This document shows positions 30,324-62,706 of a stretch of DNA of 64,000 nucleotides, in pieces; the stretch's first letter is position 1; the number at the start of each line of letters is the position of its first letter. Both the position numbers and the translations under genes were made by a program. Where the stretch lies: positions 24,414 to 88,413 of the IMG/VR virus record IMGVR_UViG_3300032086_003078; one strand, given 5' to 3'. This DNA comes from a virus. The notes beneath the pieces are model-generated. The model saw only the letters and a list, made by a program, of their open reading frames with translations, had not been told where the DNA came from and searched no databases.

Positions 30324-30620
30324 ATGAGATTTCAGGACGATTCATACAGCATTGAGGTCGGCACCTTTGTTATGAATAATCATCATGGGCTGTTGAGAAT
30401 GGGCGTTGTAGAAGACATGCGTATCACTGAAGAGGGGTGGGCTATGTATAAAGTAAACTTCCTAGAAGATGAAATATATCAGCGCAATAAAACGTTTCAT
30501 AGTGAGATCTCTGGTAGAGACGAGTTTCAGTACGAACACAGAAGGGATCAACTTGTTAAAGTAAACCCTCAGTGGCTGCAAAATGTTGTAAATGCCTACG
30601 AGGAGATTCAAAATGTCTGA
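30324..30620 (+). CDS. Small hypothetical protein, GDLV/SH3-like family (distant)
   Basis: A 98-residue protein. SIEVGTFVMNN...LLRMGVVEDM followed by a YKVNFLEDE strand and an RDQLVKVNP end repeats the beta-barrel layout of the small KPGDLVR proteins found further on, but with more divergence. Its end overlaps the next start by eight bases. Confidence 0.6.
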   Translation: MRFQDDSYSIEVGTFVMNNHHGLLRMGVVEDMRITEEGWAMYKVNFLEDEIYQRNKTFHSEISGRDEFQYEHRRDQLVKVNPQWLQNVVNAYEEIQNV

Positions 30621-30963
30621 AGATAATAATATAAAAGAAGAGGTTGCGGATGATCTCATCCCAAAGCCACCACCAAAACTAGCACCAAGAGGGATTACCA
30701 GCTTCACAGTTTATCGCCAACAGGATGAAACAGGTGTATCAGGTGAGGGTGTCGTAATCGAGGGTGTTGTTATGGCTACGGGTCAATGCGTTGTACACTG
30801 GCTCTATCCGCCACCCCGTGGAGGTATTGCCATCTTTGATAGTATGAGCGACTTTGTGAAGGTTCATATTGAACCCCACCCAGCGAATCAAACTATTATA
30901 ACTTATCAGGATGGCACTAAAGATGTGTATGGCGAGAAGCCAGAAGAAGAAAGCACTGATTAG
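30613..30963 (+). CDS. Hypothetical protein, Pro-rich N-terminus
   Basis: A 116-residue protein starting at ATG 30613, supported by GAGGAG at 30600-30605. An acidic start, then KPPPKLAPRG, and a beta-rich core (GEGVVIEGVVMATGQCVVHWLYPPPRGGIAIF). Acidic tail EKPEEESTD. The core looks like a small barrel; no family recognised. Last gene before a strong terminator. Confidence 0.6.
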   Translation: MSEDNNIKEEVADDLIPKPPPKLAPRGITSFTVYRQQDETGVSGEGVVIEGVVMATGQCVVHWLYPPPRGGIAIFDSMSDFVKVHIEPHPANQTIITYQDGTKDVYGEKPEEESTD

Positions 30964-31015
30964 AGAATATTAATACTATATATTCTAATTGGAATCCCTG
31001 CCAAGGCAGGTGGCT

Positions 31016-31046
31016 GAGCAGGGAGATGGTGCCCTGCTCTTTTTTT
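31016..31046 (+). terminator. Strong Rho-independent terminator
   Basis: GAGCAGGG (31016-31023) pairs with CCCTGCTC (31032-31039) and is followed by seven or more T. A smaller CTGCC/GGCAG hairpin lies just upstream at about 30998-31009. Confidence 0.92.
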
Positions 31047-31076
31047 GCGTTATAGTTTTTTTGGTAGCTAATTAAA

Positions 31077-31084
31077 TATACAAA
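31077..31084 (+). promoter_or_regulatory. Candidate late promoter variant GCTAATTA
   Basis: GCTAATTA (CTA-N-TTA core) ends 20 bases before GTG 31105 and directly follows the terminator, so transcription must restart here. Confidence 0.45.
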
Positions 31085-31104
31085 GAAGCAAGGAGCTAAG
31101 CATA

Positions 31105-31527
31105 GTGTCGGATTATTTTCAATACCCTCCTGGTCTTGGTAATGTTTCTTCTTACCAAGTTTCTGGTAAGCCCTTCGCCCAAGGTAATTTGACCGCACCA
31201 GCTTCAAGTGGTACTCCAATAAAGGTAACCTTTCCTTCTGTTACAAACTGGGTTAAGGTCTTACCAGTCACTGGGTCTAGTTCTACTCATTTACGCATAG
31301 GATTCTCAGAAAATGGTGTTAAGGGCACAAATTATTTTAGATATTTGGCTGGGAATAATTTTAACCATGAACTGGCTTCTGCTGCGCCACTACAACTAAA
31401 AGTGACAGAATTATATTTTCTTGGAGATGATACAGCAACAGTCAATTTTGATGTCGTTGCTGGTCTTACGGGCATAAATGTCGATCAGATTTCGAATAAT
31501 TGGTCTGGCTCAGTTGGCGTGGGCTAA
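31105..31527 (+). CDS. Probable virion or head-surface protein
   Basis: A 140-residue protein starting at GTG 31105 behind AAGGAG. It is rich in Ser, Thr, Gly and beta-strand residues (WVKVLPVTGSSSTHLRIGFSENG, ELYFLGDDTATVNFDVVAGLTG), like a jelly-roll decoration protein, and almost lacks Cys. It stands alone between a terminator and the next sigma-70 promoter and has a late-type element, which supports a virion role. No family recognised. Confidence 0.55.
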   Translation: MSDYFQYPPGLGNVSSYQVSGKPFAQGNLTAPASSGTPIKVTFPSVTNWVKVLPVTGSSSTHLRIGFSENGVKGTNYFRYLAGNNFNHELASAAPLQLKVTELYFLGDDTATVNFDVVAGLTGINVDQISNNWSGSVGVG

Positions 31528-31532
31528 AAAAC

Positions 31533-31560
31533 TTTACTTTTCTCAGAACTAGTCTATAAT
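31533..31560 (+). promoter_or_regulatory. Sigma-70-type promoter
   Basis: TTTACT (31533) and a perfect TATAAT (31555) with a 16-base spacer, just upstream of the 31585 and dnaE genes. Confidence 0.7.
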
Positions 31561-31584
31561 AAACATATAGAAGAGGAGAGATAA

Positions 31585-31797
31585 ATGAAAGTCGGAGATC
31601 TTGTCAACTTCACAGACCGCAGCCACAGCCTTTATCGCAAGTATTCCAAAGGTCCAGGTGTCATCGTAGACATTGATTATATTGCCAAATACAACCGAAT
31701 GTCCCGCCACAAATATCTTGGAGCAAAGGTCACAGTCCAGTTCCCAGGGCTAGACAAACCATCAGTCGTTACAGAATATTCACTACAAGCAATCTAA
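31585..31797 (+). CDS. Small GDLV/SH3-like protein
   Basis: A 70-residue protein beginning MKVGDLVNFTDRSHSLYRKY, then GVIVDIDYI, AKVTVQFPG and a final TEYSLQAI. This is the strand order of the small SH3-like barrel family that recurs about twenty times in the window. It is the first gene of the dnaE transcript. Function unknown; the fold often binds nucleic acid or protein tails. Confidence 0.7.
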   Translation: MKVGDLVNFTDRSHSLYRKYSKGPGVIVDIDYIAKYNRMSRHKYLGAKVTVQFPGLDKPSVVTEYSLQAI

Positions 31798-31810
31798 AGA
31801 AAGGTTTTAG

Positions 31811-36113: not shown

Positions 36114-36575
36114 ATGCGTGTAAGAGTCCAACGAGTTCACGAAAATGCTAAACTACCAAAACGAGCCCATGCAGATGATGCTGGCATGGACTTGTTTTTT
36201 TGCCCACCGCCAAAACCAGAGCTAGATTCTCAGATTGAGACTGTACTACCTTTTGGCTCCTCGGTCCTCCCAACAGGACTAAAGATTGAAGTTCCTAAGG
36301 GTTATATGCTTGAGATCAAAAACAAGTCAGGCATTGCTTCAAAGCGAGGGTTGATTGTCGGCGCTTGTGTGGTTGACAGAGGGTATACGGGAGAGATTTT
36401 TGTGAATCTTCACAACATTACCCATCGCAACCAGACCCTCCACGAGGGAGACAAAATCGCCCAGGCAGTTTTTGTAAAAGTCAGGACTGACATTGAACTG
36501 ATTGATTCAGATCACATCTACGACGAAGAGACCAGTCGAGCAGAAGGTGCTCTTGGCTCAACGGGAGACAGATAA
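36114..36575 (+). CDS. dut: dUTP diphosphatase
   Basis: A 153-residue trimeric dUTPase. All five family motifs are visible: ADDAGMDLF (1), KNKSGIASKRGLIV (2), GACVVDRGYTGEIFV (3), EGDKIAQAVFV (4) and the C-terminal AEGALGSTGDR loop (5). It converts dUTP to dUMP, keeping uracil out of DNA and feeding dTTP synthesis. The frame remains open upstream to TTG 36003, which has AAGGAG before it and would add a Cys-rich 37-residue extension (CFGCGCNLKPACPGYW). ATG 36114 gives the normal family length and is used here. Confidence 0.9.
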   Translation: MRVRVQRVHENAKLPKRAHADDAGMDLFFCPPPKPELDSQIETVLPFGSSVLPTGLKIEVPKGYMLEIKNKSGIASKRGLIVGACVVDRGYTGEIFVNLHNITHRNQTLHEGDKIAQAVFVKVRTDIELIDSDHIYDEETSRAEGALGSTGDR

Positions 36576-36580
36576 AAAAA

Positions 36581-36608
36581 TTGACCTCTTTGTAACTTGT
36601 GATAATAT
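36581..36608 (+). promoter_or_regulatory. Sigma-70 extended -10 promoter
   Basis: TTGACC (36581), 16 bases ending TGA, TAATAT (36603). Member of the repeated TTGACN-N13-TGR-TAATAT family. It drives the 36628 group of small genes. Confidence 0.85.
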
Positions 36609-36627
36609 AAGATAGAAGGAGAGAGTT

Positions 36628-36855
36628 ATGGAAGTCGGTAAAAAAGTAAGGCTTACAGGCATCACACGCCATGGCAAGAATCGTGTTCGAGAACAGGGAG
36701 ATGTTTGGGAAGTCATTCGCATGAACCCATCAGTATCTTTCAAAACAAATGCTCCTGGACCTTTTATGTTGCTCCAGGCAACCACCACTATCAATATGCG
36801 GTGGGTCTCAACAATTAATGACGACAACTTCTCAGTAGAGGTGATTGATGAGTAA
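36628..36855 (+). CDS. Small GDLV/SH3-like protein
   Basis: A 75-residue protein starting MEVGKKVRLTGITRHG, then GDVWEVIRMNPSVSF and MRWVSTINDDNFSVEVIDE. The order (short strand with V-G-x-x-V, central variable loop, final VEV strand) is that of the local SH3-like family. Overlaps the next gene by 11 bases. Confidence 0.65.
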   Translation: MEVGKKVRLTGITRHGKNRVREQGDVWEVIRMNPSVSFKTNAPGPFMLLQATTTINMRWVSTINDDNFSVEVIDE

Positions 36856-37060
36856 AAACGAATGGCGTAAAAATCTGAAGGTCGGCGACCTCGTGAAGAT
36901 GAAGTCAGGACATCTTGCGATTCTGACCGAGGTATATATGCGCCAAACTGGACCTAACGGCAGCGATTATCCGCACGTCAAAATACTATATTGTGATGAT
37001 CAGTCCGCCGGCGGGTGTAGTGCTTGGCGAGTTGCGGAGGTTCTCAATGAAGCCAGGTGA
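36845..37060 (+). CDS. Small GDLV/SH3-like protein
   Basis: A 71-residue protein: NLKVGDLVKMKSGHLAILTEVYMR, VKILYCDD and a final WRVAEVLNEAR. Clear family member. Its last 14 bases hold the start of the next family member, with GGAGG as ribosome site inside the gene. Confidence 0.7.
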   Translation: MMSKNEWRKNLKVGDLVKMKSGHLAILTEVYMRQTGPNGSDYPHVKILYCDDQSAGGCSAWRVAEVLNEAR

Positions 37061-37241
37061 TCTAGTACGAATCTCAGACTGGGACACCAAACTCAACCGA
37101 GGCTGGAATCCCATCGGGCTTGTTTTATCAGAGCCCGAAGTAAAGAATCACGGCACAACCTGTGTCCTTGTTGATTGGCTTGAGTCGCCAGACACTGAAT
37201 ATTACTCGGTTCACCACCTAGAAATAATTTCAAATTCATAA
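37047..37241 (+). CDS. Small GDLV/SH3-like protein
   Basis: A 64-residue protein starting at ATG 37047: MKPGDLVRISDWDTKL, IGLVLSEPEVK, CVLVDWLE and HHLEIISNS. It shows the family consensus almost perfectly. Start chosen at the MKPGDLVR Met because GCGGAGG precedes it; the frame is open further back. Confidence 0.75.
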   Translation: MKPGDLVRISDWDTKLNRGWNPIGLVLSEPEVKNHGTTCVLVDWLESPDTEYYSVHHLEIISNS

Positions 37242-37246
37242 GAAAA

Positions 37247-37274
37247 TTTACAAAAGAAAACTTTGTGGTACAAT
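37247..37274 (+). promoter_or_regulatory. Sigma-70 extended -10 promoter
   Basis: TTTACA (37247), 16 bases ending TGG, TACAAT (37269). It drives the nuclease-methyltransferase pair. Confidence 0.7.
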
Positions 37275-37296
37275 AAACCAGCGTTAGGAGAACGTA

Positions 37297-37902
37297 ATGG
37301 AAATGATGTTTGAAGTCGCATCTCGAATCACTAATGAAATTAGCAAGAAAAGAATCAAAGCAAACATCTGGGAAGGGTCTCGGTTTGAGGTTCTAAAAGA
37401 TTATACTTGTGATGAGATTGGAGAGTGGGGTGAGAGTTTAGTCTATGACGTAATGAACTCTGATCCTGAGGTGACAGTCACTCATGGCGGCAATACCATT
37501 CTTGAAGACGGTCATTATGATTTTTACATGACAGGTCCGTTTGGAAATCTTCGTGTAGAGCAAAAAACTGCCCGTCTCAACTCTGGACCAGGCGGCACTT
37601 TTCAGCACGAGAGTTTGCGCCTTGACGGAACTTGTGAATCTTTTATTTTCCTTGATGTGTGTCCGAACGAAATGTTCTTGACTGTGATTGCTTCTAATTC
37701 CATCAAGCACGGCGAGCGCCACTCGATCCTGAAGAGGACACCTCACCAGCGTGCGGAGAGTAAAAAATATAAGTTTGATCTTAGCCGTAAGATCTGTGAG
37801 AGCCGAGGCATTCCTGCTGGTATCACAATGCGTATTGATATCAATACTACACCAACAGAGGTACGAAACTTTATTAAGGAGAGACTAAGTGCAGTTTCCT
37901 AG
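37297..37902 (+). CDS. PD-(D/E)XK nuclease-like protein, possible restriction partner
   Basis: A 201-residue protein with a plausible PD-(D/E)XK active site: E46 in EWGESLVYDVM, D75 in GHYDFYM, and E88-Q-K90 in LRVEQKTA. The following strand-rich part (CESFIFLDVCPNEMFLTVI) fits the fold. It overlaps the methyltransferase gene by 14 bases on a shared transcript, the usual arrangement of a type II restriction-modification pair. An alternative is a nuclease for host DNA breakdown with the methylase guarding phage DNA. Confidence 0.6.
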   Translation: MEMMFEVASRITNEISKKRIKANIWEGSRFEVLKDYTCDEIGEWGESLVYDVMNSDPEVTVTHGGNTILEDGHYDFYMTGPFGNLRVEQKTARLNSGPGGTFQHESLRLDGTCESFIFLDVCPNEMFLTVIASNSIKHGERHSILKRTPHQRAESKKYKFDLSRKICESRGIPAGITMRIDINTTPTEVRNFIKERLSAVS

Positions 37903-38953
37903 CATGGAATCACAAGAAGAACTGCTTGATCTTCTAGAGGATGTTATCGATGCTACAAGCATTAAAGAAGTGGCATCGATGTTTAACGTTGTTCCCAACA
38001 CAGTAGAGAGGTGGTTTCTGCTTGGAGAAATACCACGGCAATACTATTTTGATTTAGCACAAATGACTGGCTTTGAAATAGACTATTCAAAACACAGCTT
38101 CAGAGATAAAGATCAGTTTTTTACCCCATCCGAAACTGCTACTTATTGTTATAATGTTTTGTGCCGTAAATTAGAAGAGCTTGGAGTTGACGAGACGAAA
38201 GTAAATTACGTAGAGCCATCGGCAGGCTCTGGTAACTTCTTGAATGTTTTGCCACCAGATCGCCGCACTGGGCTAGATATCGAACCTAGATCACCAGAGA
38301 TTATTGAAGGCGATTATTTGTCATGGAAACCAGAAACTGATAATAATATTGTTATTGGAAACCCACCTTTTGGTCTTCGAGGGCATTTAGCTCTCCGCTT
38401 TATGAATCACTCAAGTAAATTTGCTGACTTTGTTGCTTTTATTTTGCCGCAATTATTTGAGAGCGATGGGAAAGGTTCACCCAAGAAAAGAGTCCAGGGG
38501 TACAACCTTATCCACTCAGAGAAGTTAGACACTTCTTTTGTCGATCCTGAGGGAAAGACTATCCCAGTGAATACAGTATTCCAGATTTGGTCGAAAGAGT
38601 TTTCAGACCCTTCATATGTTGTCGATACTTCGTCTTGTGACAAGCATTTAAAAGTCTATTCTTTGTCTGATGGCGGCACTCCTGGGACTACAAGAAACAA
38701 GCCACTATTAGATAAGTGTGATGTGTACCTTCCATCTACATGTTTCGGCGAAGATAAGATGAAAGTTTATAAAAGCTTCGAAGATCTACCAGGAAGAAAA
38801 GGATACGGTGTGGTATTTCTATCGAAGAAGAATGAAAATAAAAAAGTATTTGAGAATATTAACTGGGCGCAGCAAAGTTTTAAGTCTACAAATTCCGCTT
38901 TCAACCTTAGAACTTCAATTATAAAAAAAGCATTTATTGACAATAAAAGTTGA
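37889..38953 (+). CDS. DNA adenine-N6-type methyltransferase with N-terminal HTH
   Basis: A 354-residue protein starting at GTG 37889 behind AAGGAG. Residues 20-55 contain an HTH (SIKEVASMFNVVPNTVERWF). The SAM-binding motif is VEPSAGSGNFL near 107, and the catalytic motif is NPPF near 158. N/D-PP-F/Y and the I-to-IV order point to a gamma-type adenine methylase. The target sequence cannot be read from the protein. The HTH could allow it to repress its own promoter. Confidence 0.85.
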   Translation: MQFPSMESQEELLDLLEDVIDATSIKEVASMFNVVPNTVERWFLLGEIPRQYYFDLAQMTGFEIDYSKHSFRDKDQFFTPSETATYCYNVLCRKLEELGVDETKVNYVEPSAGSGNFLNVLPPDRRTGLDIEPRSPEIIEGDYLSWKPETDNNIVIGNPPFGLRGHLALRFMNHSSKFADFVAFILPQLFESDGKGSPKKRVQGYNLIHSEKLDTSFVDPEGKTIPVNTVFQIWSKEFSDPSYVVDTSSCDKHLKVYSLSDGGTPGTTRNKPLLDKCDVYLPSTCFGEDKMKVYKSFEDLPGRKGYGVVFLSKKNENKKVFENINWAQQSFKSTNSAFNLRTSIIKKAFIDNKS

Positions 38954-38977
38954 CAGACTCCTCTTCCGTGGTAATAT
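38950..38977 (+). promoter_or_regulatory. Sigma-70 extended -10 promoter
   Basis: TTGACA (38950), 16 bases ending TGG, TAATAT (38972). Near-consensus. It overlaps the end of the methyltransferase gene and starts the main small-gene array. Confidence 0.88.
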
Positions 38978-38997
38978 ACTAATGTAAGGAGAGAGTG

Positions 38998-39192
38998 ATG
39001 AGCGACTTCAATATGTTTCACGGCGAGCGTGTCAAGTACGCAGGGTACCATCCCCTTTACCGTGGCTGCAAGGGTGTCGTTGTCGGCGGCGACCACCACA
39101 ACATTCGTGTGGAGTGGGAAGGTCATGAAGACTATCCCCCCCGTCTTCACGAGGCGTGGGAAATTGTTTGGCTCGTAGATAGCGGAGAGTAG
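38998..39192 (+). CDS. Small SH3-like barrel protein
   Basis: A 64-residue protein starting at ATG 38998 after AAGGAGAGAG. GERVKYAGYHPLYRGCKGVVVGGD, NIRVEWEGHED and WEIVWLVDSGE follow the family pattern with the first strand changed to GERV. First gene of the 38998-39676 run. Confidence 0.65.
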   Translation: MSDFNMFHGERVKYAGYHPLYRGCKGVVVGGDHHNIRVEWEGHEDYPPRLHEAWEIVWLVDSGE

Positions 39193-39194
39193 TT

Positions 39195-39362
39195 ATGAAG
39201 ATGAAAGAAGGCGATCTGGTTCGACACCTTGAGAATGGTCAAGCGGGAGTTATTGTTCTCTCTTGGGGCGTGATGGATGTCGTAGAGGTTCTTTGGAATG
39301 ATGGTGAAGTCAGGGGACAGAACCTCTGCGAATTGGAGTTGATCAATGCAGCAAATAAATAG
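39195..39362 (+). CDS. Small GDLV/SH3-like protein
   Basis: A 55-residue frame: MKMKEGDLVRHLENGQAGVIV, VVEVLWNDGEV, CELELINAANK. One of the shortest family members. Starts three bases after the previous stop; ends inside the next gene. Confidence 0.7.
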   Translation: MKMKEGDLVRHLENGQAGVIVLSWGVMDVVEVLWNDGEVRGQNLCELELINAANK

Positions 39363-39528
39363 GTTCGGTGTCGGTGCCCTAGTCAATGTTGATAAGCATT
39401 ACAACAAAACTTTGGGTATGATTGTCCGCCAAAGCCGTGGGTACAACTGGATTGTCAAACGTATGAACGACGGTCAAAATGTCCTAGCTCACGAAGACAA
39501 TATGGAGGTGGTCAGTGAAGCCAGGTGA
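39346..39528 (+). CDS. Small GDLV/SH3-like protein
   Basis: A 60-residue protein: RFGVGALVNVDKHYNKTLGMIVRQ, NWIVKRMNDG, NMEVVSEAR. Family pattern with VGALV replacing PGDLV. It overlaps neighbours on both sides, with ribosome sites embedded in coding sequence. Confidence 0.7.
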   Translation: MQQINRFGVGALVNVDKHYNKTLGMIVRQSRGYNWIVKRMNDGQNVLAHEDNMEVVSEAR

Positions 39529-39676
39529 TTTGGTTCGGCACCGAGGGAACAAAAAAGTATACCTCATACTTAAAACCCGTAAGATCAAAGGCGAGGTTAT
39601 CTATGTTCACCTAGAGGGTATGCCCGACAACAATGTTCATTATCCAGAATCTCTAGAACTAATACAAAAAGCTTGA
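39515..39676 (+). CDS. Small GDLV/SH3-like protein
   Basis: A 53-residue frame starting at GTG 39515 behind GGAGGTG: VKPGDLVRHRGNKKVYLIL, EVIYVHLEG, LELIQKA. A near-minimal version of the family. Its stop codon lies within the -35 box of the next promoter. Confidence 0.7.
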   Translation: MKPGDLVRHRGNKKVYLILKTRKIKGEVIYVHLEGMPDNNVHYPESLELIQKA

Positions 39677-39700
39677 CAGCAACCCTATCCGTGATAGTAT
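39673..39700 (+). promoter_or_regulatory. Sigma-70 extended -10 promoter
   Basis: TTGACA (39673), 16 bases ending TGA, TAGTAT (39695). Followed by the same AAGGAGAGAG leader as the 38950 promoter. Confidence 0.82.
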
Positions 39701-39719
39701 AAGATGTAAGGAGAGAGAA

Positions 39720-39875
39720 ATGTCGGTTCAAGAACACATCGAAAACATCCTCAATGCCGAAGGTCAAGCAGCACTTGATGCTTGGTATGTCGCCATCCAC
39801 GAACACCCTCAAAGTGCTATGGATATCCACGATGAGGTTGTTGATCACCTTGTCGCTAACACCTTCTTGTACTAA
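39720..39875 (+). CDS. Small acidic hypothetical protein
   Basis: A 51-residue frame, helical and acidic (MSVQEHIENILNAEGQAAL, SAMDIHDEVVDHLVA). Not an SH3-like family member, although embedded among them. Promoter and AAGGAGAGAG precede it. Confidence 0.55.
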   Translation: MSVQEHIENILNAEGQAALDAWYVAIHEHPQSAMDIHDEVVDHLVANTFLY

Positions 39876-39885
39876 GGAGAGAGCG

Positions 39886-40149
39886 ATGCTTTACGGCGAA
39901 GAACTTCTCAAGTCAATTCAGAACCGCTGCCGCATCCAGCCTGGTATGCTGATTCGCAGCCGACCAGAAGGCTTTGGAGAGAATGCCCCTCACGGCGGTA
40001 AGGTTGCTCTTGTCACGAAGGTGTCTCCTGGCTGTAAGTTTGATCGGGACTACGAAGGCGCAGAAGAACACATCTTCTATGTCTGCGAGCCCTTTGACGG
40101 CACAAATGAGTTCGTAGACTATGTTTGTAATATGGAGCAGGTATCGTGA
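39886..40149 (+). CDS. Small GDLV/SH3-like protein, extended
   Basis: An 87-residue protein with about 17 extra helical residues ahead of IQPGMLIRSRPEG, then GGKVALVTKVSPG, IFYVCEPFDG and NMEQVS. Start ATG 39886 follows AAGGAGAGAGCG. Overlaps the next gene by four bases. Confidence 0.7.
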   Translation: MLYGEELLKSIQNRCRIQPGMLIRSRPEGFGENAPHGGKVALVTKVSPGCKFDRDYEGAEEHIFYVCEPFDGTNEFVDYVCNMEQVS

Positions 40150-40406
40150 AGGTCGGGCAGATTGTAAAACTAACGCCAAAGGCTTTAGGCAAGTTCGCTC
40201 CTGGTATTCGCAAACGACTTGAAGGCTCAATTGGTCTGGTAATCAAGGAGAAGTATGACCTCTCCTACAGGATTGACCAAGACAAGCTCCCAGAGCGAGT
40301 TAAGGTTTATCCAGCTTGCGTACAGTTCAACGAATTAGAAGACATCTTGGGTTGTGAAGATAACACTATCATGCTCTTTGACAATGAAGCGGAGGTCTTA
40401 TCATGA
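40146..40406 (+). CDS. Small GDLV/SH3-like protein
   Basis: An 86-residue protein starting at GTG 40146: VKVGQIVKLTPKALGKF, GSIGLVIKEKYDL, VKVYPACVQF, NEAEVLS. Family member with a longer loop. GTGA overlap with the previous stop. Confidence 0.7.
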   Translation: MKVGQIVKLTPKALGKFAPGIRKRLEGSIGLVIKEKYDLSYRIDQDKLPERVKVYPACVQFNELEDILGCEDNTIMLFDNEAEVLS

Positions 40407-40600
40407 AACCAGGTGATTTAGTTCGCATTAGAAAGTCAGCGATTGATGCTTATTCCACCCTGTGGTTCATTGACCTCGCCGAAAGAAAGGCACCGCTGCT
40501 TTTAATGGAACTCGTCAATAGACGCCATTGGAAAGTAATGAAGCCCGATGGAAATACTTTTTTTGTTGAAGAAGAAAGCCTAACGAAGAGGTTGTGGTAA
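40403..40600 (+). CDS. Small GDLV/SH3-like protein
   Basis: A 65-residue protein: MKPGDLVRIRKSAIDA, LLLMELVNRRHWKVMKPDGN and an end (FFVEEESLTKRLW) different from the usual EVxS. ATGA overlap with the previous stop, GGAGG upstream. Confidence 0.72.
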   Translation: MKPGDLVRIRKSAIDAYSTLWFIDLAERKAPLLLMELVNRRHWKVMKPDGNTFFVEEESLTKRLW

Positions 40601-40836
40601 TGCAACGAGAAACATACAACTCACGGCTCAATATGAACCCCGACAATGTTAAGCCAGGGACGCTACTACGGGCAAAGAAGTGGTGTCGAAATAATATCAC
40701 TATACGCAAGAACGGCGAGTATGCTATCATTGTACCAGCAAAAGAAAAGTATTCTGAGTATGATGTTATGTTCCCCAGCGGAATGAGAATTATGTATATG
40801 GCGATTAACTGGGAGGTGTTGAGTAATGTTGGTTAA
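40600..40836 (+). CDS. Small GDLV/SH3-like protein
   Basis: A 78-residue protein starting at ATG 40600 (TAATG overlap). An extra 16-residue head precedes VKPGTLLRAKKWCRNN, then EYAIIVPAKEK, YDVMFPSGMRI and NWEVLSNVG. Confidence 0.7.
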   Translation: MQRETYNSRLNMNPDNVKPGTLLRAKKWCRNNITIRKNGEYAIIVPAKEKYSEYDVMFPSGMRIMYMAINWEVLSNVG

Positions 40837-41065
40837 GGATAAGATGTGGAAAGTCCAGCAGCCTGGAACTATTTTACGAGCCCGTCATAGTGCTCGCCGT
40901 GGTCAGTTGGCTTTGGTTCTTGCGAGAGCCGAGCCCGGTCCTCGACCAAGCAACGGCTATCCTCCCACCGAGTATGTGAAGATGCAGATGATCTCAAGCG
41001 GCGAGAGGATCAAGGAATCACTCACTAACGCCAACAACTGCTGGGATATTGTGAGCGAACCCTGA
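40826..41065 (+). CDS. Small GDLV/SH3-like protein
   Basis: A 79-residue protein: VQQPGTILRARHSARRGQLALVLARA, YVKMQMISSG, NCWDIVSEP. Basic first half. Overlaps both neighbours. Confidence 0.7.
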   Translation: MLVKDKMWKVQQPGTILRARHSARRGQLALVLARAEPGPRPSNGYPPTEYVKMQMISSGERIKESLTNANNCWDIVSEP

Positions 41066-41268
41066 TGGCTCTTAAATCAAAGCATGTTCCAGGACAACTC
41101 GTCGAGATTACGATCGCTGGTCAGCGTTACATGGCATTGGTTCTTTCAACGATTCCAGCCCCACGCCGTGGCATGAGCCCCATGGTTCAGGTCCAGTGGA
41201 TCGGCGATGCCCCTCGTGATTATCAGGTTGAATATGTAGAGGATCATGCCGTAAAGCCAGTGAAATAA
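41065..41268 (+). CDS. Small GDLV/SH3-like protein
   Basis: A 67-residue protein: HVPGQLVEITIAGQRYMALVLST, VQVQWIGDAP and EYVEDHAVKPVK. Last gene of the array. Start shares its A with the previous TGA. Confidence 0.68.
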   Translation: MALKSKHVPGQLVEITIAGQRYMALVLSTIPAPRRGMSPMVQVQWIGDAPRDYQVEYVEDHAVKPVK

Positions 41269-41281
41269 CCTACCCTCGTGA

Positions 41282-41289
41282 ACTACTTA
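41282..41289 (+). promoter_or_regulatory. Candidate late promoter element ACTACTTA
   Basis: ACTACTTA ends 23 bases before ATG 41313. The 15-mer ACTACTTACTATAAG is identical to that before the tail tube gene. Confidence 0.5.
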
Positions 41290-41312
41290 CTATAAGATAG
41301 TTTGCGGGGAAA

Positions 41313-43142
41313 ATGAAAATGCCTATAAGCAGTAGAAATAAAAGTCTTATATTATGGTTTTTAGTAGTAGTATCTGTTTTCTTTCTGTTGAGTGTCGGCA
41401 CGTATGAAAAACCGCTTTTAGTAGAAAAAATATCTTATACGGAAATGATAAAAGTCATTTCTGAGGCAGACGATCAAAATACAGAAATCTCGGTGGTTAT
41501 CCAAGGTAACACTTGGAAAACAAACATAAAAGATAAAACATATACTACGATAGCTCCGCTCACTGACAAGACAATTGACGATCTATCAAATCATAAAAAC
41601 CTTGAAATACGTTTCTTAGAACCTAAGCAGCCATCAATCTGGTTAAATATCCTTATTGGTTGGCTTCCGTTCTTAATTATATTTTATTTTGTTTACCGCT
41701 TTTTTAAGAACGCTCCAAAACTAGGCGGCGGCGCTGACAGAATGAGCGACTTTGGGAAGTCAGGTGCCACAGTCATCATGCCTGGAATAGATAACACCAA
41801 GTTCGGCGACGTTGCTGGCTGCGACGAAGCCAAAGAAGAACTGGAAGATCTTGTCGAGTTTTTGCGGAACCCAAAGAAATTTACAGATATGGGTAGCAAA
41901 CTCCCTAAAGGTGTTCTACTGCATGGACCTCCTGGAACAGGTAAAACACTCCTAGCCAAAGCAATGGCTGGCGAAGCAGAAGTTCCGTTCTTATTGGCTG
42001 CTGGCTCAGACTTCGTAGAAATGTTTGTTGGCGTAGGTGCTTCCCGTGTCCGTGATTTATTTGACCAGGCTTATCAACTTGCTCCTTGCGTAGTCTTCAT
42101 TGATGAGATTGACGCCATCGGCAAGAAGCGTGGTGGACCTGGCGGCGGAGGCAATGACGAGCGAGAGCAGACACTCAACCAAATGCTTGTCGAAATGGAC
42201 GGCTTCGCAGACAATTCAGGCATCATCATTTTAGCGGCTACAAACCGAGTAGAAATGCTTGACCGAGCCCTTACCCGCCCTGGACGCTTTGACCGCAAAG
42301 TTTCGGTTGGATTGCCCGATGTAAATGGACGGAAACAAATATTAAAGATACACACACGCAACGTCCCCGTTGCTGAAGACTTAGACCTAGAACTCATAGC
42401 CAAAACAACACCAGGCTTTTCAGGCGCTGACCTATCCAACCTCGTCAATGAGGCTTCCATCATAGCAGCCCTAGACGAAGCACCCGTAGTTGAGAACTAC
42501 CACTTCGACCAAGCCAGAGACAAAGTCACTATGGGCAAGCCTCGCAAGTCAATGAATATGAGCGAGGAGTCCAGACGTGCTACAGCAATCCACGAAGCGG
42601 GACACGCTCTGTTGGCTTACTACCTAGAGGACGCCGACCCTCTACACAAGGTCACCATCATTCCTCACGGCAGAGCCCTCGGCTTAACAATGCAACTCCC
42701 AGAAGACGACAAATATTCGTGGAGCAAAAAAGAAAACATAGCAAGAATCAAAGTATTGCTGGGCGGCTACATCGCAGAGAAAATGTTTTATGGTATTGAA
42801 GGCACATCAACAGGCGTATCAAATGACTTATTGCGAGCCAAGCAGATAGCCGAGACAATGGTCAAGGACTACGGAATGGGCTCAGTCGGTCCAGTCTATT
42901 TCGGCAATGCTGACGCTTACGGCAATCGTGGTGCTGATATGTCTGACTTCACTAAAGAGCAGTTCGACACAGCCGTCAATGAGATTATGACCCAAGCCCT
43001 GCGGGAAGCAGAAGAACTACTCAAGGAAAAGCGAGAGCACATCGTCATTCTAACCAACATGCTCTTGGAGCAGGACACAGTCCTAGAAGAAGAGTTGGAA
43101 GGTATGTTCGGTCTCCTCGACATTTATTTTGAGGAAGACTAA
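41313..43142 (+). CDS. ftsH: FtsH-type membrane AAA+ zinc protease
   Basis: A 609-residue FtsH of near-normal length (E. coli 644). Two membrane helices (about residues 11-28 and 110-130) flank a small periplasmic domain. Walker A is GPPGTGKT (205-212), Walker [12 protein letters not shown], the SRH region [21 protein letters not shown], and the zinc site HEAGH (427-431). The hydrophobic pore loop keeps [10 protein letters not shown]. The first 430 bases are clearly AT-rich while the AAA and protease parts are richer in G/C-ending codons, which hints at a mosaic origin. It could degrade host membrane or regulatory proteins, or defend phage membrane functions. ATG 41319 is an alternative start. 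Confidence 0.95.
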
Positions 43143-53906: not shown

Positions 53907-53934
53907 TTGACTCCTACAACTCTTATGATAATAT
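53907..53934 (+). promoter_or_regulatory. Sigma-70 extended -10 promoter
   Basis: TTGACT (53907), 16 bases ending TGA, TAATAT (53929). It drives the 53956 gene. Confidence 0.85.
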
Positions 53935-53955: not shown

Positions 53956-54594
53956 ATGAGCTACTGGCATCAAATGTATCCTCAGAAAAGAGCCTCTGAG
54001 CGAGTGGAAGTTCCTAACGGCGAAGCTCGCTTTGAAGCACTCCTCGCCAAAGAACTCAGTGTACATGACCGCAAGTTCGCCACATCCCTGAGTGAGCAAC
54101 TTAAGGACCAAGGCAAACTCTCTCCCAAGCAGGTTGAGTGCCTTGATCGTATGGAAGAGCGATACTCAGAAGAGGCTATGATTGCTCGCAAGAACTGGGA
54201 AGCGACCTACAAAGCAGAGCACCGCCAGACAGCGATTATCTGTGCGAACTACTACGTCACGACCAGTTACTTCCGTGACCTCGCAGTCAAGATTGCGACC
54301 GACGAAGATTTCGTCCCCACCGAACGGCAGTTCAACGCCCTCACCAAAAACAAGTATGCCCAGAAGGCTATCAAGGCTGCGACCGAGCCGCCTGCCTTTC
54401 CTGTCGGCACCCTTGCCAAGGTTCGAGCCAACTACAACTTGGTTAATGACCGCTCCCTCCACAACCAGATCGGTCTGGTGGTAGCGAACCACGCTAAAGG
54501 GCTCTACGCTTCCTCAACCATCCTTGTAAATGGGAAGCAGCACAAGCTAGAAGACCGCTGCCTCAAGTCCGCTGCGGGCAAGAAAAAGAAATAA
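53956..54594 (+). CDS. Hypothetical protein with C-terminal SH3-like domain
   Basis: A 212-residue protein. Residues 1-145 are helical and charged (RMEERYSEEAMIARKNWEATYKAEH). The last 65 residues repeat the local small-protein pattern (FPVGTLAKVRANYNL, HNQIGLVVANH, TILVNGKQHKLEDRCLK), so it is a fusion of the SH3-like fold to a helical domain, ending in a Lys tail. Function unknown. Confidence 0.65.
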   Translation: MSYWHQMYPQKRASERVEVPNGEARFEALLAKELSVHDRKFATSLSEQLKDQGKLSPKQVECLDRMEERYSEEAMIARKNWEATYKAEHRQTAIICANYYVTTSYFRDLAVKIATDEDFVPTERQFNALTKNKYAQKAIKAATEPPAFPVGTLAKVRANYNLVNDRSLHNQIGLVVANHAKGLYASSTILVNGKQHKLEDRCLKSAAGKKKK

Positions 54595-54645: not shown

Positions 54646-55068
54646 ATGCGAGCAACAATTAGTTTTGAGACTGATGTAGATCAAGTAGAGGGCACCATGG
54701 CAGTTATTGCCTGCGAAGAAGAGCACAACCTTCGTGCTGCTGCTGATATCTTGGGCAACTACACTGTCCTAGATGGCAGCTTGCTAGACGCCATCACAGA
54801 GGTACTGCGTGTGCTAGACTCGTCTACCGAACAACTTAGACAATATCAGCAGATGTTAGTTTCTTTTGAGAAGGCAAGGTTCGAGACAATGCTTCCGCAG
54901 TCTGCGCCTGCCACAGTGCCAGTTACAGCTAAAAGCATTGGCGAAACAGTAAGAGCAATAAAAGAGGCTCAAAATCAATCAGCACAGATGGAAATGTTTA
55001 ATAAATTCATCAATCGAATTGATAAAGAAGAGGAAGAGAGCGATGGACTTCAAACCCAAGAAGGGTGA
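54646..55068 (+). CDS. Hypothetical protein
   Basis: A 140-residue protein from ATG 54646 (AAGGAGGA ahead). Acidic beta start (MRATISFETDVDQVEG), then helices (LLDAITEVLRVLDSSTEQLRQYQQML) and a Glu-rich end. No family recognised. Overlaps the next gene by 26 bases. Confidence 0.6.
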   Translation: MRATISFETDVDQVEGTMAVIACEEEHNLRAAADILGNYTVLDGSLLDAITEVLRVLDSSTEQLRQYQQMLVSFEKARFETMLPQSAPATVPVTAKSIGETVRAIKEAQNQSAQMEMFNKFINRIDKEEEESDGLQTQEG

Positions 55069-55285
55069 TCTAGTATATCTTCCCTCGAATATTATGATCA
55101 TCGGAGAAGGACTCGCTCAGAATACCAGCGTACCTGATCGATGGCTAAACTTAATTGAGCCAACTATGGGCGTGATGGTTGAGCCAAACTACAATAATGA
55201 AAACATATATCACAAAGTTCACCTACAGGGTAACGACTGGCTCGTTAGAACAATTGATACGCTAGAGGTAATTTCCAGTGCTTGA
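55043..55285 (+). CDS. Small GDLV/SH3-like protein
   Basis: An 80-residue protein: FKPKKGDLVYLPSNIMI, MGVMVEPNYN, HKVHLQGNDW, DTLEVISSA. Clear family member, 14 kb away from the main array. It starts inside the previous gene. Confidence 0.7.
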   Translation: MDFKPKKGDLVYLPSNIMIIGEGLAQNTSVPDRWLNLIEPTMGVMVEPNYNNENIYHKVHLQGNDWLVRTIDTLEVISSA

Positions 55286-55559
55286 ATTGAAAGAAGTTTT
55301 TGTTGATAAAGTAAAGAATGATGTGGGTTATGAAAAGGTATACTCGTCCCGTGATTGTCTTGTGAACCCAGATTACATTGTAACTGTGTACCCTCATGAA
55401 TTTTCTAGCTCTAGTGACGAAAAAATGCTAAGTAATTTTCATGAGAAAATGGACCCGGTAGAATTCTCAAGGATTGTTTTAGATGGAAATAATTTTAGAA
55501 CATCTGAGATGATTGTTCTCATTCCATATGAAAAGTTAGTGGGTTTGTTGAAGTCGTGA
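55278..55559 (+). CDS. Hypothetical beta-rich protein
   Basis: A 93-residue protein from GTG 55278: LELKEVFVDKVKN, DCLVNPDYIVTVYPHEF, then a strand-helix end (MIVLIPYEKLVGLLKS). No catalytic motif. Overlaps both neighbours. Confidence 0.6.
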   Translation: MLELKEVFVDKVKNDVGYEKVYSSRDCLVNPDYIVTVYPHEFSSSSDEKMLSNFHEKMDPVEFSRIVLDGNNFRTSEMIVLIPYEKLVGLLKS

Positions 55560-56437
55560 GTAGTCATACTTGGTACGATCTAGCAGATCATTTCTGTGCT
55601 AGAGAAAAGTCCCTTATGGACGGGGGCGACAATCGTTATTTTGAAAGGCTTGCTGCCAGACGTTATAACTATGCTCTGAAGAATAATCCAGGCGCTGTGC
55701 GTTTGGTTTTCTTACGCTCGGCAGCAGAGAATCCAACGAACAAGACTTTGTTGCGTAATGGGCGTTTCATCTGGTGCAAGAACTTACGCTTTGAGGGAGT
55801 AACTGAAGGCAATCTAAGGAAGCTCTCCTTTACGATTGGCAAAGGGCAGAAGAGATTTACAGTCACCGAACAAGATGTCTTGGTTATTCCTGGGAACATC
55901 TACATTAATAACAATTCTTTTTTCCGCAAGTATGAGAAAGTATTTTCATCGTTCTCCTCGGTGTTTGCCTGTCGGGAATGTCTTAAAATAATGAAAAGAA
56001 GTGACGGATATGACTGGAAATCTCTAGATGAGTTTGCAGAGTATATCAGGAGCTATGCCCCGTTCCGACCTGGGACATTGGTTTCCCCTCGTATGGGCTT
56101 CTTTGTCCCTAGGATCAGCAAACTACAGGATAAAGTAGCAGATCTGTCAGACAAGTTCTGCCAAGAAAAATCAATCAACAACAGAAAGCAAGAGCTAATT
56201 TCCTACCTTTCAGGAAGGGATTATATTACCACAGACAAAAAGCTCCTGAAGATGTTTAACGATTTTAATGAGTGGTGCGAAAACGAACCCTCAGCAGTTC
56301 ATCCTGTTGGTGTTATTCTAGGTCAAGCTCGTGATGTTTCGCCACATTCAGGTAGGGAACTTTACCGAGTGAGCTTTGCGGAAACTATTTATGAAAAGGT
56401 ACATCCAATACAGATGGAGGTTTTAAATGAAGTTTAG
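55556..56437 (+). CDS. Hypothetical protein with split SH3-like domain
   Basis: A 293-residue protein from GTG 55556. Residues 1-165 are basic and aromatic (YFERLAARRYNYALKN, RKYEKVFSSFSSVFACRECLKIM). The C-terminal part opens with FRPGTLVSPRMGFFV and closes with VGVILGQARDVS, YRVSFAETIYEKVHPIQMEVL, the strands of the GDLV family, separated by about 70 inserted residues. It is therefore a long member with an insertion. It overlaps the glutaredoxin gene. Confidence 0.6.
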   Translation: MSSHTWYDLADHFCAREKSLMDGGDNRYFERLAARRYNYALKNNPGAVRLVFLRSAAENPTNKTLLRNGRFIWCKNLRFEGVTEGNLRKLSFTIGKGQKRFTVTEQDVLVIPGNIYINNNSFFRKYEKVFSSFSSVFACRECLKIMKRSDGYDWKSLDEFAEYIRSYAPFRPGTLVSPRMGFFVPRISKLQDKVADLSDKFCQEKSINNRKQELISYLSGRDYITTDKKLLKMFNDFNEWCENEPSAVHPVGVILGQARDVSPHSGRELYRVSFAETIYEKVHPIQMEVLNEV

Positions 56438-59473: not shown

Positions 59474-59474
59474 G

Positions 59475-59675: not shown

Positions 59676-59700
59676 TGGGGCACAAAGAAAGGAGCCTAAG

Positions 59701-60340: not shown

Positions 60341-60374
60341 TTATTAATACTATGGGGTAACAACAGAAAAACCT

Positions 60375-60839: not shown

Positions 60840-60852
60840 TGAAAGAGTTGTT

Positions 60853-61080
60853 ATGCAAGTGGGAGCACTTGTTGAAACCACCGACAAGATCTTTACACTG
60901 CCCTCTCATAGCGAAGTGGATGGTCTCCATGATATCCTGGACAAAGGAACAGTAGGCATCATTGTGAAGCGCCCAACCCACGGCAAACCACGTCAATACT
61001 TGATTAACTTTGTTGGTGGTAGAGAGTATTGGATGTTTAGCAATGAGATCAAGCCGTACATGGGAGAAAAAAATGTTTGA
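60853..61080 (+). CDS. Small GDLV/SH3-like protein
   Basis: A 75-residue protein: MQVGALVETTDKIFTL, GTVGIIVKRPTHG, YLINFVGGREYWMFSNEIKP, end MGEKNV. ATG 60853 is chosen because earlier Met codons sit inside the hydrolase gene. Its last bases form one copy of a 16-base repeat flanking the HNH gene. Confidence 0.68.
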   Translation: MQVGALVETTDKIFTLPSHSEVDGLHDILDKGTVGIIVKRPTHGKPRQYLINFVGGREYWMFSNEIKPYMGEKNV

Positions 61081-61081
61081 A
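61066..61081 (+). repeat. Direct repeat, left copy
   Basis: GAAAAAAATGTTTGAA, a 16-base perfect repeat, also at 61541-61556. It holds the end of the SH3-like gene and start of the HNH gene. Confidence 0.7.
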
Positions 61082-61555
61082 ACCTTTACAATTATGTCCC
61101 CCAAACACGGTCCAAAGCAGGTGCTAGTAGATAAAGAGGACCTTTATTTACTTGAGCAACACAAGTGGCACATATGGGAAGACCATGGCAGGGGTATATT
61201 TTATGTTCGGCGCACAAAAAGAAATGCACCTCAAGGCTATGAAAACTATCTTGCTCGCTTGATTGTTGGTGCAAAAAAAGGTGACGTTGTAGATCACATA
61301 AATGGCAACACGTTGGACAACAGGAAAGAAAACCTAAGAGTGACAACTCAATCAAAGAATGGCTTGAACCGAAGAGGACCAAATAAGAATAATAAGAGTG
61401 GTGCTCTAGGTGTAGTAAAGAAGTGGAATAAATATTATCCCTACATCAAGATCGACAGAAAACAAACATGGTTTGGTGGTTACGACACGCTTGACGAGGC
61501 AGTAGCAGTAAGGGCAGCTAAATTGAAAGAGCACTTGGAGGAAAAAAATGTTTGA
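61073..61555 (+). mobile_element. HNH homing endonuclease with AP2-like DNA-binding domain
   Basis: A 160-residue protein from ATG 61073. DVVDHINGNTLDNRKENLRVTT is the HNH nuclease core, and SGALGVVKKWNKYYPYIKIDRKQTWFGGYDTLDEAVAV is an AP2-like domain. Such genes move as stand-alone homing elements in phages. A perfect 16-base repeat at both ends of the gene fits insertion. No intron boundary is visible. Confidence 0.82.
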
Positions 61556-61556
61556 A
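61541..61556 (+). repeat. Direct repeat, right copy
   Basis: GAAAAAAATGTTTGAA, identical to 61066-61081. It carries the end of the HNH gene and the start of the SNase gene. Confidence 0.7.
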
Positions 61557-61886
61557 TACTACGCAAAAGTTTTAAAGATAGTTGACGGCGACACAATCGA
61601 TGTGATGGTTGATCTGGGTATGGGCGTTCACCGCAAGGAACGCTTACGCTTTTCCCGCATCAATGCTTGGGAAGTCCGTGGGGAACACAAAGAGAAAGGC
61701 AAGCTCGCAAAGGCTAGAGTTGCCGAACTTATTCCTGTGGGTGAAAAAATTATTATTAAAACTGAGAAAGATAAAAGAGGGAAGTTCGGGCGGTATCTAG
61801 CAGAGATTATTATCTTAGATGACGACGAAACCAACTTAAACGATTTGCTACTAAACGAAGGACACGCTGTCCTCTATAATAAGTAA
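61548..61886 (+). CDS. Staphylococcal nuclease-like (SNase/thermonuclease) protein
   Basis: A 112-residue protein with KIVDGDTIDVMVDLG (metal Asp), LRFSRINAWEVRG (active Arg region), KTEKDKRGKFGRYLAEI (second Arg/Lys site) and LNDLLLNEGHAVLY. All SNase landmarks are present in a short form without signal peptide. It could cut host nucleic acid or process DNA ends. Confidence 0.82.
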   Translation: MFEYYAKVLKIVDGDTIDVMVDLGMGVHRKERLRFSRINAWEVRGEHKEKGKLAKARVAELIPVGEKIIIKTEKDKRGKFGRYLAEIIILDDDETNLNDLLLNEGHAVLYNK

Positions 61887-61930
61887 TACTTCCTATATAC
61901 TATAGCAAAAACATAAGGAGAAGTGCTATA

Positions 61931-62215
61931 ATGAATACAATCAATTACCAACAGATCTTTGAAGAAGAACTCGATGATGTTACCAAAGAGCTAATGAATC
62001 TTACAACTAGCTACTTCGACCTGTCAGAAGAGCAGCGCAGGATGATTGAACAATTGGTTGATATCGGATACCAGCGGGCGCTGGAAGATGCTCTCGATCC
62101 AGAAGTCCTAGCAGAGACAGCCGAACTCTCAGGAGAGATGGGTACACAGCTTTATAACTTTTCAAATATGATTCAGTCATTTTTATCCACTAAAAATACT
62201 GATGCAGAGAACTAA
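61931..62215 (+). CDS. Hypothetical acidic helical protein
   Basis: A 94-residue protein (INYQQIFEEELDDVTKELMNL, LSEEQRRMIEQLVDIGYQRALEDALD). AAGGAG ahead. A TATACT box at 61896 could be its -10, but no -35 fits. No family recognised. Confidence 0.58.
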   Translation: MNTINYQQIFEEELDDVTKELMNLTTSYFDLSEEQRRMIEQLVDIGYQRALEDALDPEVLAETAELSGEMGTQLYNFSNMIQSFLSTKNTDAEN

Positions 62216-62561
62216 TTATAGAGCCGGTGATATCGTAAGGATTACCGTAGTAAATGGCTGGACTCTAGGTCACTACCATGGCAATAGGTCTAGACATTTT
62301 TTACCCTTAAATTGGTTACGTGAGTGCCCTACTCCAATGTCGGAACTGTATCATACAGATTTTGACAAGCACTATACATCTTTCGAGGGAGAGTTGGCAC
62401 TGTTGTTGAAGATTACAAGAAATCTACTTGACCAACCCACAGGTTATCAAGTACAGATCGGTCAGAACATTATGTTATGTAAATCTGTTATAGCCGAGAA
62501 GTATTTTGAACTTGCGGGGGATAAAAACAATGTGGCAGGCAGGGGAGCTAGTAAGGTTTAA
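62202..62561 (+). CDS. GDLV/SH3-like protein, extended
   Basis: A 119-residue protein: YRAGDIVRITVVNGWTLG at the start and LALLLKITRNLLDQPTGYQVQIGQNIMLCKSV later, with a long loop between. Family member by pattern, with an unusual C-terminal extension. Overlaps both neighbours. Confidence 0.6.
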   Translation: MQRTNYRAGDIVRITVVNGWTLGHYHGNRSRHFLPLNWLRECPTPMSELYHTDFDKHYTSFEGELALLLKITRNLLDQPTGYQVQIGQNIMLCKSVIAEKYFELAGDKNNVAGRGASKV

Positions 62562-62706
62562 AACATACGAAATGCAGCCAGAATGGAAAATTGGCTTGGT
62601 TCTACGACACGATAAGTTTCTTGGTATTGTTGAGATACTTGTCGATGGTGAGCTTCATTATGCACCGAAGCGATTAGTCCATGCATATTCTGGAGGATAT
62701 AAATGA
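62530..62706 (+). CDS. Small GDLV/SH3-like protein
   Basis: A 58-residue protein from ATG 62530: MWQAGELVRFKTYEM, KIGLVLRHDKFLG, VEILVDGELHYAP, KRLVHAYSGGYK. Family member. GGGGG site just before, inside the previous gene. Confidence 0.68.
   Translation: MWQAGELVRFKTYEMQPEWKIGLVLRHDKFLGIVEILVDGELHYAPKRLVHAYSGGYK

What the first reader, a model, noticed from the sequence alone, without database searches (positions are those of the whole stretch)
30324..62706. Expansion of about twenty tiny GDLV/SH3-like proteins
Roughly twenty frames (30324, 31585, 36628, 36845, 37047, 38998, 39195, 39346, 39515, 39886, 40146, 40403, 40600, 40826, 41065, 55043, 60853, 62202, 62530, plus fused copies in 53956 and 55556) share a plan: K-P/V-G-D-L-V-R, a loop, G-L/V-V-L, a V-x-V/W strand and an end like L/W-E-V-I-S. 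Fourteen are nearly contiguous at 36628-41268 and overlap head to tail. They look like single small SH3-like barrels that have multiplied and diverged. A family this large in one phage region suggests an arms-race or modular adaptor role rather than housekeeping.
Basis: partly seen in the sequence, partly recalled or inferred. Interest (0 to 1): 0.88.

Follow-up and report, generated by a model that had tools for sequence, protein, structure and literature searches.

The report
Shuffling arrays of tiny SH3-like phage genes
A group of uncultured marine T4-like viruses carries strings of about 10 to 36 tiny genes that all make the same small barrel-shaped protein, often linked by one shared 32-letter DNA joint that is ribosome site, start and stop at once, so the genes behave like exchangeable cassettes, probably aimed at the bacterial host.

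Summary
Of 21 frames named, 10 pass a held-out HMM test, 8 more are supported by profile-profile or iterated-profile comparison (including both fused copies), and 3 stay weak (30324, 36628, 38998). Three extra members lie upstream of the window. AlphaFold2 gives a confident five-strand SH3-like barrel (pLDDT 90). No Pfam, PHROGs or NCBIfam family covers them.

The stronger finding is how the arrays are built. Neighbours very often overlap by exactly 14 nt: 71 of 182 distinct pairs in loci not chosen for it; other genes 4 of 249. One 32-bp joint, about TTGGAGGTNATCAGTGAAAGTCGGTGATTTGGT, encodes the upstream tail (LEVISESR-stop), the Shine-Dalgarno, the start and the downstream MKVGDLV. Relatives carry the same cassettes in other orders behind the same joint; close copies within one locus are almost absent (4 of 1,094), so this is exchange, not recent tandem duplication. 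Sub-operons start at a strict sigma-70-type promoter (6 matches, 0 expected). dN/dS is about 0.19. The arrays mark one uncultured marine Far-T4-like clade.

Best reading: an early, swappable library of single-domain binders for host takeover or counter-defence. The target function is inferred, not shown.

The parts
36845..37060 (+). SH3-like cassette; its relatives are joined by the 14-nt joint to six different downstream cassettes
   Evidence: held-out E 0.01
37036..37066 (+). dual-coding joint 1: Shine-Dalgarno, start of 37047 and stop of 36845
   Evidence: exact consensus match, 0 expected
37047..37241 (+). SH3-like cassette; modelled structure
   Evidence: held-out E 1e-5; AF2 pLDDT 90
37297..37902 (+). 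type II restriction enzyme-like gene inside the array
   Evidence: PADLOC REase_II E 2.6e-4
37889..38953 (+). type II DNA methyltransferase inside the array; block replaced by an unrelated methyltransferase in L122
   Evidence: PADLOC MTase_II E 9e-51
38998..39192 (+). probable SH3-like cassette, weak statistical support
   Evidence: held-out E 9; profile-profile P 3.5
39195..39362 (+). SH3-like cassette
   Evidence: held-out E 5e-4
39346..39528 (+). SH3-like cassette
   Evidence: held-out E 4e-4
39504..39534 (+). dual-coding joint 2: Shine-Dalgarno, start of 39515 and stop of 39346
   Evidence: exact consensus match, 0 expected
39515..39676 (+). SH3-like cassette; interior replaced relative to L122 with joint intact
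   Evidence: held-out E 7e-5
39886..40149 (+). SH3-like cassette, divergent
   Evidence: profile-profile P 60
40146..40406 (+). SH3-like cassette
   Evidence: E 0.002 untrained; P 88
40403..40600 (+). SH3-like cassette; interior diverged relative to L122
   Evidence: held-out E 1e-5
40600..40836 (+). SH3-like cassette
   Evidence: held-out E 0.45, no decoy above; iterated profile
40826..41065 (+). SH3-like cassette, divergent; second modelled structure
   Evidence: P 35; AF2 same strand order, pLDDT 74
41065..41268 (+). SH3-like cassette; L122 has an extra 260-bp cassette inserted just before it
   Evidence: P 95
31585..31797 (+). solitary SH3-like gene
   Evidence: held-out E 3e-4
55043..55285 (+). 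solitary SH3-like gene
   Evidence: P 80
60853..61080 (+). solitary SH3-like gene
   Evidence: E 0.003 untrained; P 30
62202..62561 (+). SH3-like gene, divergent
   Evidence: P 17; ortholog L115:9116-9442 E 0.003
62530..62706 (+). SH3-like gene, close to L003:11574-11777
   Evidence: held-out E 0.0015
53956..54594 (+). larger protein with an SH3-like domain at residues 136-212
   Evidence: P 83.5
55556..56437 (+). larger protein with an SH3-like C-terminal region (residues 146-293, long insertion)
   Evidence: P 22; ortholog L115:14556-15341 E 2e-8
36628..36855 (+). first gene of the cluster; possible distant member
   Evidence: weak: P 1.5, E 0.013 against controls of 0.07 or more
30324..30620 (+). 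possible distant member
   Evidence: weak: P 5, E 0.0024
36581..36608 (+). conserved sigma-70-type promoter heading the cluster
   Evidence: 6 matches, 0 expected
38950..38977 (+). same promoter, second sub-operon
39673..39700 (+). same promoter, third sub-operon
53907..53934 (+). same promoter before the fused gene 53956

Best explanation
This is a cassette island of an uncultured marine Far-T4-like myovirus. Each cassette is a 50-80 residue single SH3-like barrel with a conserved core and hypervariable loops. Cassettes are strung head to tail. In the commonest arrangement a 32-bp joint, inside coding sequence, encodes the last beta strand and tail of one protein (LEVISESR-stop), the Shine-Dalgarno (GGAGGT, read as L-E-V), the start codon and the first strand of the next protein (MKVGDLV). 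A crossover in two such joints adds, removes or swaps a gene without harming frame, ribosome site or coupling. Shown: the joint, permuted orders, cassette gain and replacement. Inferred: homologous recombination at the joint. Sub-operons are headed by a strict host sigma-70-type promoter, so they are probably early genes (inferred). The proteins share no conserved surface or catalytic residues, range from acidic to basic, and are each under purifying selection, so they most likely form a library of binders, each fitted to a different host protein or complex, used for host takeover and counter-defence (inferred).
For: Fold. Family beyond chance: 277 members, none on the wrong strand; 1,130 members in 129 loci, 3 on the minority strand. 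Joint: 84 of 214 adjacent pairs at -14, 71 of 182 distinct, joint 63% identical with flanks 26-28% among 22 non-redundant joints; other gene pairs 4 of 249; joint pattern in at least 120 viral stretches but 10 in 257 Gb of cellular genomes. Exchange: one cassette joined to six different partners, 20 of 22 testable clusters with two or more partners; insertion at 41064 and replaced interiors with intact joints against L122; near absence of close same-locus copies. Early-type promoter: 6 in window, 0 expected, none in 1-36580; 24 sense and 0 antisense in relatives. Binder pattern: column variation and pI 4.2-9.9, dN/dS 0.19. Swapped methyltransferases and a restriction enzyme-like gene inside the array.
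Against: No target, expression or phenotype is known. Genes interspersed in other arrays are mostly nucleotide, chaperone and repair genes, not known defence or anti-defence. Slow amino-acid change within orthologs argues against an intense arms race. KOW-type fold neighbours would also fit a role on RNA polymerase or ribosomes. More than half of neighbouring pairs use other spacings (-4, -11, -1, -8 or a gap), so the joint is common but not universal.
Confidence: 0.55

Rival explanations
1. The proteins are KOW-like factors that all act on the same machinery, RNA polymerase or the ribosome, each member tuning a different step or host version of it.
For: Sequence profile and structure both point first to Spt5, NusG, uL24, eL21, eL26 and EF-P barrels; early-type promoters.
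Against: Charge runs from pI 4.2 to 9.9 and no surface is conserved, unlike a set with one nucleic-acid ligand; the matches are below family thresholds.
Confidence: 0.2
2. The arrays are mostly neutral or selfish: a gene type that spreads because its joint makes insertion harmless and self-starting, with little use to the phage.
For: Fast gain and loss of whole cassettes and a joint that makes insertion frame-safe.
Against: Strong purifying selection, median dN/dS 0.19; near absence of redundant copies; family kept at 18-22 members in every long relative tested in this subclade.
Confidence: 0.1
3. The joint is not a recombination site: it arises again and again because the GD codons of strand 1 contain TGA and the LEV codons of strand 5 contain a Shine-Dalgarno, and arrays grew by old tandem duplication.
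For: GGTGAT gives Gly-Asp in one frame and a stop in the other; both motifs are structural and occur in solitary members.
Against: The same upstream cassette keeps the 14-nt joint in front of six different partners; interiors are replaced while joints stay intact; unrelated gene pairs rarely use -14; close same-locus copies are missing.
Confidence: 0.1
4. Small virion or internal head proteins injected with the DNA.
For: Two outlying groups lie close to terminase and capsid genes (L003:9918-11777).
Against: The main arrays lie in the replication and host-metabolism region under host-type promoters that are absent from the virion gene region; gene content is far more variable than the virion genes.
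Confidence: 0.05

Closest known systems
SPO1 host-takeover module (26 mostly small early genes; PMC6873191)
   Same: Dense cluster of small genes under early, host-type promoters, thought to hit many host processes.
   Different: SPO1 genes are not one fold (own knowledge) and have no shared joint; here one fold is used throughout. No toxicity or target is shown here.
T4-type mobile regulatory cassettes, PeSLs (Arbiol 2010, Comeau 2014, cited in PMC4503421; the papers themselves are not held)
   Same: Short repeated elements between genes of T4-like phages linked to modular shuffling; an early-type promoter recurs between array sub-operons here.
   Different: PeSLs are intergenic promoter plus stem-loop (title and own knowledge). 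The joint lies inside two overlapping reading frames, has no structure above chance and no promoter; terminator-like sites are at chance level.
KOW, Tudor and other small SH3-like barrel proteins (Spt5, NusG, uL24, NdhS, PetP, CarD)
   Same: Five-strand barrel with a short turn before the last strand; GD-x-V in strand 1, G-x-V in strand 2.
   Different: Sequence similarity is below any family threshold; single-domain, almost phage-only, in arrays.
ORFanage region of cyanophage S-PM2 (PMC4503421)
   Same: Run of 33 orphan genes in a marine T4-like phage, prone to loss.
   Different: The family profile finds no member in S-PM2.
Far-T4 phages (PMC4360716; RM378, Flavobacterium phage immuto)
   Same: Genome type: terminase and capsid protein are nearest to Far-T4 phages.
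   Different: The array family is absent from RM378, immuto and Microcystis phage Mel-JY01, and SH3 is not mentioned in the Far-T4 paper.

Membership tests
SH3-like small-barrel fold | Five beta strands in barrel order with a 3-10 turn before strand 5 | tested here: met
   AF2 pLDDT 90 for 37047, 74 for divergent 40826 with the same order; Foldseek neighbours are small barrels with TM 0.5-0.7. E-values are above 0.03, so fold class only.
KOW domain family | Significant match to a KOW sequence model | tested here: not met
   No member above a Pfam cut-off; best KOWx_SPT5 E 0.045 for one of 104; PDB profile search best E 0.01.
KOW domain family | Role in transcription or translation | not testable with these tools
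   No expression or binding data.
Known phage protein families (PHROGs) | Significant PHROGs match | tested here: not met
   Window members best E 0.015; of 104 members a few scattered hits, best 1.8e-4, to different families of unknown function.
   30324, 36628 and 38998 only weakly.
T4-type PeSL cassette | Intergenic early promoter plus stem-loop terminator at module borders | tested here: not met
   The joint is inside coding sequence, z-scores 0.4 to 1.2 for folding; terminator-like sites at chance level; the promoter recurs only at sub-operon starts.
Integron gene cassette | attC-like inverted repeats at cassette ends | tested here: not met
   No inverted repeat pair in 36500-41350 at 16 nt or more.
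Phage host-takeover module | Early expression | tested here: inconclusive
   Host-type promoter of fixed sequence before sub-operons; expression not measured.
Phage host-takeover module | Products bind or inhibit host proteins | not testable with these tools
   Needs pull-downs or growth tests.

The most novel reading that the evidence does not exclude
A phage combinatorial system: one scaffold fold, exchanged between phages as whole genes through a dual-coding joint that is at once strand 5 of one protein, ribosome site, start, stop and strand 1 of the next, giving each phage a different, non-redundant set of host-binding proteins.
Probability: 0.4. Interest if true: 0.87.

Novelty: new variant of a known kind. 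Interest (0 to 1): 0.74.

Why it matters
It would be a natural, clade-wide protein scaffold library: more than a thousand diverged single-barrel genes in a small sample, none in Pfam, with exchange built into the coding sequence. It gives a concrete, testable route by which large lytic phages renew host-directed genes without tandem duplication, and a source of small binders of bacterial proteins. It also warns annotators that shared protein ends can be imposed by a DNA joint.

Tried and rejected
Pfam, PHROGs, NCBIfam and PDB sequence searches gave no family. Searching viral contigs with the first alignment failed for lack of conserved blocks. tblastn of a member against cultured phages found nothing and a consensus only weak single hits in Aeromonas phages and one Sinorhizobium phage. 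Recent tandem duplication: rejected. Rapid positive selection: rejected. attC-like or PeSL-like structure at the joint: rejected. Defence genes dominating array neighbourhoods: not found in general, although a restriction-modification pair sits in this array. T4 late-promoter motif TATAAATA: at chance level. One genome-contig hit (Mesobacillus, L276) holds no member and is a chance match. The PeSL papers could not be read. Four paper searches for earlier reports of such arrays found none; this library is open-access only, so that is weak evidence of novelty.
Full report
What the window is. The window is bases 24414-88413 of an 88,413-base virus record. Its head, tail and packaging genes are T4-like; the terminase is nearest to Flavobacterium phage immuto (48%) and Microcystis phage Mel-JY01 (44%), and the capsid protein to the same phages, two huge uncultured phages and RM378: the Far-T4 neighbourhood (PMC4360716). 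It also carries a DnaE-type polymerase, FtsH, GroEL, IMP dehydrogenase, a ClpP-like protease and a sigma region-4 protein.

Observation. All frames exist. A simple motif scan already shows strand bias: tight pattern 15 on + and 2 on -, although - has more ORFs. In a leave-one-out test eleven of fifteen core members are found by a profile of the others at E 0.01 or better with no unrelated ORF above them; shuffled members are not. Selection by the end motif makes that partly circular, so two more tests were made. Profile-profile comparison with related rows removed supports nine frames against ten controls that give almost nothing. A model of the central part alone, without either end motif, separates members from other ORFs with AUC 0.97. 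The fused copies in 53956 (residues 136-212) and 55556 are supported; 30324, 36628 and 38998 stay weak.

Fold. AF2 on a 104-row alignment gives pLDDT 90 and five strands with a short turn before the last. The outlier 40826, modelled from only eight sequences, has the same order. Foldseek matches are small barrels: PetP, NdhS, Tudor, kin17 and Spt5 KOW, CarD, chromo, PWWP, EF-P; the best viral hit has TM 0.84. The E-values are modest, as expected for 60-residue barrels, so the claim is fold class, not family.

Distribution. A terminase scan gave 80 related viral loci, and one gene of the array gave 16 loci that span the array. An iterated profile finds 277 members in these loci, none on the wrong strand. 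Each long relative of this subclade (115-191 kb) holds 18-22 members; RM378, immuto, Mel-JY01 and S-PM2 hold none. A pattern for the joint (below) hits at least 120 viral stretches, but only 10 stretches in 257 Gb of cellular genomes, several of them marine metagenome bins. Those loci hold 1,130 members, one with 36 in 14.8 kb. Twenty-two of 28 of the larger joint-bearing contigs carry the same capsid protein, 54-77% identical, including a 293-kb contig. The arrays are thus a property of one large uncultured clade.

The joint. In loci fetched by homology and not by pattern, 71 of 182 distinct adjacent pairs overlap by exactly 14 nt (84 of 214 before removing duplicates). With one stricter start rule applied to all genes of these phages, family pairs do so in 17 of 82 and other pairs in 4 of 249. 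Prokaryotic overlaps are normally -4 or -1 (PMC10666635, PMC6728339). In these pairs one stretch encodes both ends: AGTGAAAGTCGGTGAT reads S-E-S-R-stop in one frame and V-K-V-G-D in the next, and the preceding GGAGGT, read L-E-V in the upstream gene, is a Shine-Dalgarno five nt before the start. Among 22 joints whose flanks are unrelated (26-28% identity) the joint is 63% identical. Two joints in the window match a 31-nt consensus without mismatch; none is expected.

Exchange. Among clusters with at least four observed downstream neighbours, 20 of 22 have two or more different family partners and 11 are joined to different partners by the 14-nt joint; the cassette of 36845 is joined that way to six. 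Against L122, which is about 94% identical in most of the cluster, the window shows a replaced restriction-modification block, two cassettes (39515, 40403) with diverged interiors and intact joints or borders, and a 260-bp cassette gained in L122 exactly at the gene border 41064. Only 4 of 1,094 members have a close relative in the same locus, while 366 have one elsewhere. This is exchange with little redundancy, not recent tandem amplification. That homologous recombination uses the joint is inferred.

Selection and surface. dN/dS within orthologs, joints excluded, has median 0.19 and never exceeds 1. The core (G-D-L-V, G-L-V, V-x-V-x-W, L-E-V-V) is conserved, loops vary in sequence and length, and pI runs from 4.2 to 9.9. 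This suits a scaffold with different partners rather than one shared nucleic-acid ligand.

Expression. TTGAC-N13-RTGRTARTRT occurs six times in the window, all on +, none expected, none before 36581; four head array sub-operons or the fused gene 53956 (36581, 38950, 39673, 53907), and relatives show 24 sense and no antisense matches. A common ribosome site, ATGTAAGGAGAGAG, follows several of them. A host-type promoter suggests early expression; this was not measured.

Function. The array sits among replication and host-metabolism genes and contains a type II restriction enzyme-like gene and a methyltransferase that a relative replaces by an unrelated methyltransferase. Interspersed genes in other arrays are mixed. 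An early, exchangeable library of host-directed binders is the most likely reading, a KOW-like role on RNA polymerase or ribosomes second, neutral persistence third.

Limits. Most relatives are fragments; the profile was trained on this subclade, so counts elsewhere are lower bounds; the 424 of 1,001 pairs at -14 come from loci chosen by the joint pattern and are biased; clustering by blastp splits remote orthologs; no host is known; 'marine' rests on titles of metagenome bins that carry the joint and on related phages, not on sample records for the window itself.

Noticed in passing
window 36581, 38950, 39673, 43151, 53907, 63570: Strict sigma-70-type promoter TTGAC-N13-RTGRTARTRT, often followed by ATGTAAGGAGAGAG; 6 exact matches, 0 expected, all + strand, none in the virion gene region.
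   Followed up: yes
window 37297-38953: Type II restriction enzyme-like gene and methyltransferase inside the array; the same slot in relative L122 holds a different methyltransferase.
   Followed up: partly
L003:3692, 4003, 4341; window 46038 and 47896: Unrelated small proteins share an N-terminal leader like MKITKSQLRQIIKEE, possibly an assembly or prohead signal; L003:4003 seems to carry a barrel behind it.
   Followed up: no
window 29092-29802: DUF3293 protein with a sub-threshold match to the S-adenosylmethionine lyase family (E 3.6e-4), a possible anti-restriction enzyme.
   Followed up: no
G025 (contig of L167), 176287-180138: A 293-kb relative has two adjacent copies of the major capsid protein gene.
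   Followed up: no
L275, L279 (CP070664.1): A WOR-3 metagenome 'chromosome' holds two pieces with family members about 64 kb apart, either an integrated or a misassembled phage.
   Followed up: no
window 28836, 41313, 43980, 51261, 56692: Phage copies of GroES-like, FtsH, IMP dehydrogenase, GroEL and ClpP-like proteins in one 30-kb stretch.
   Followed up: partly
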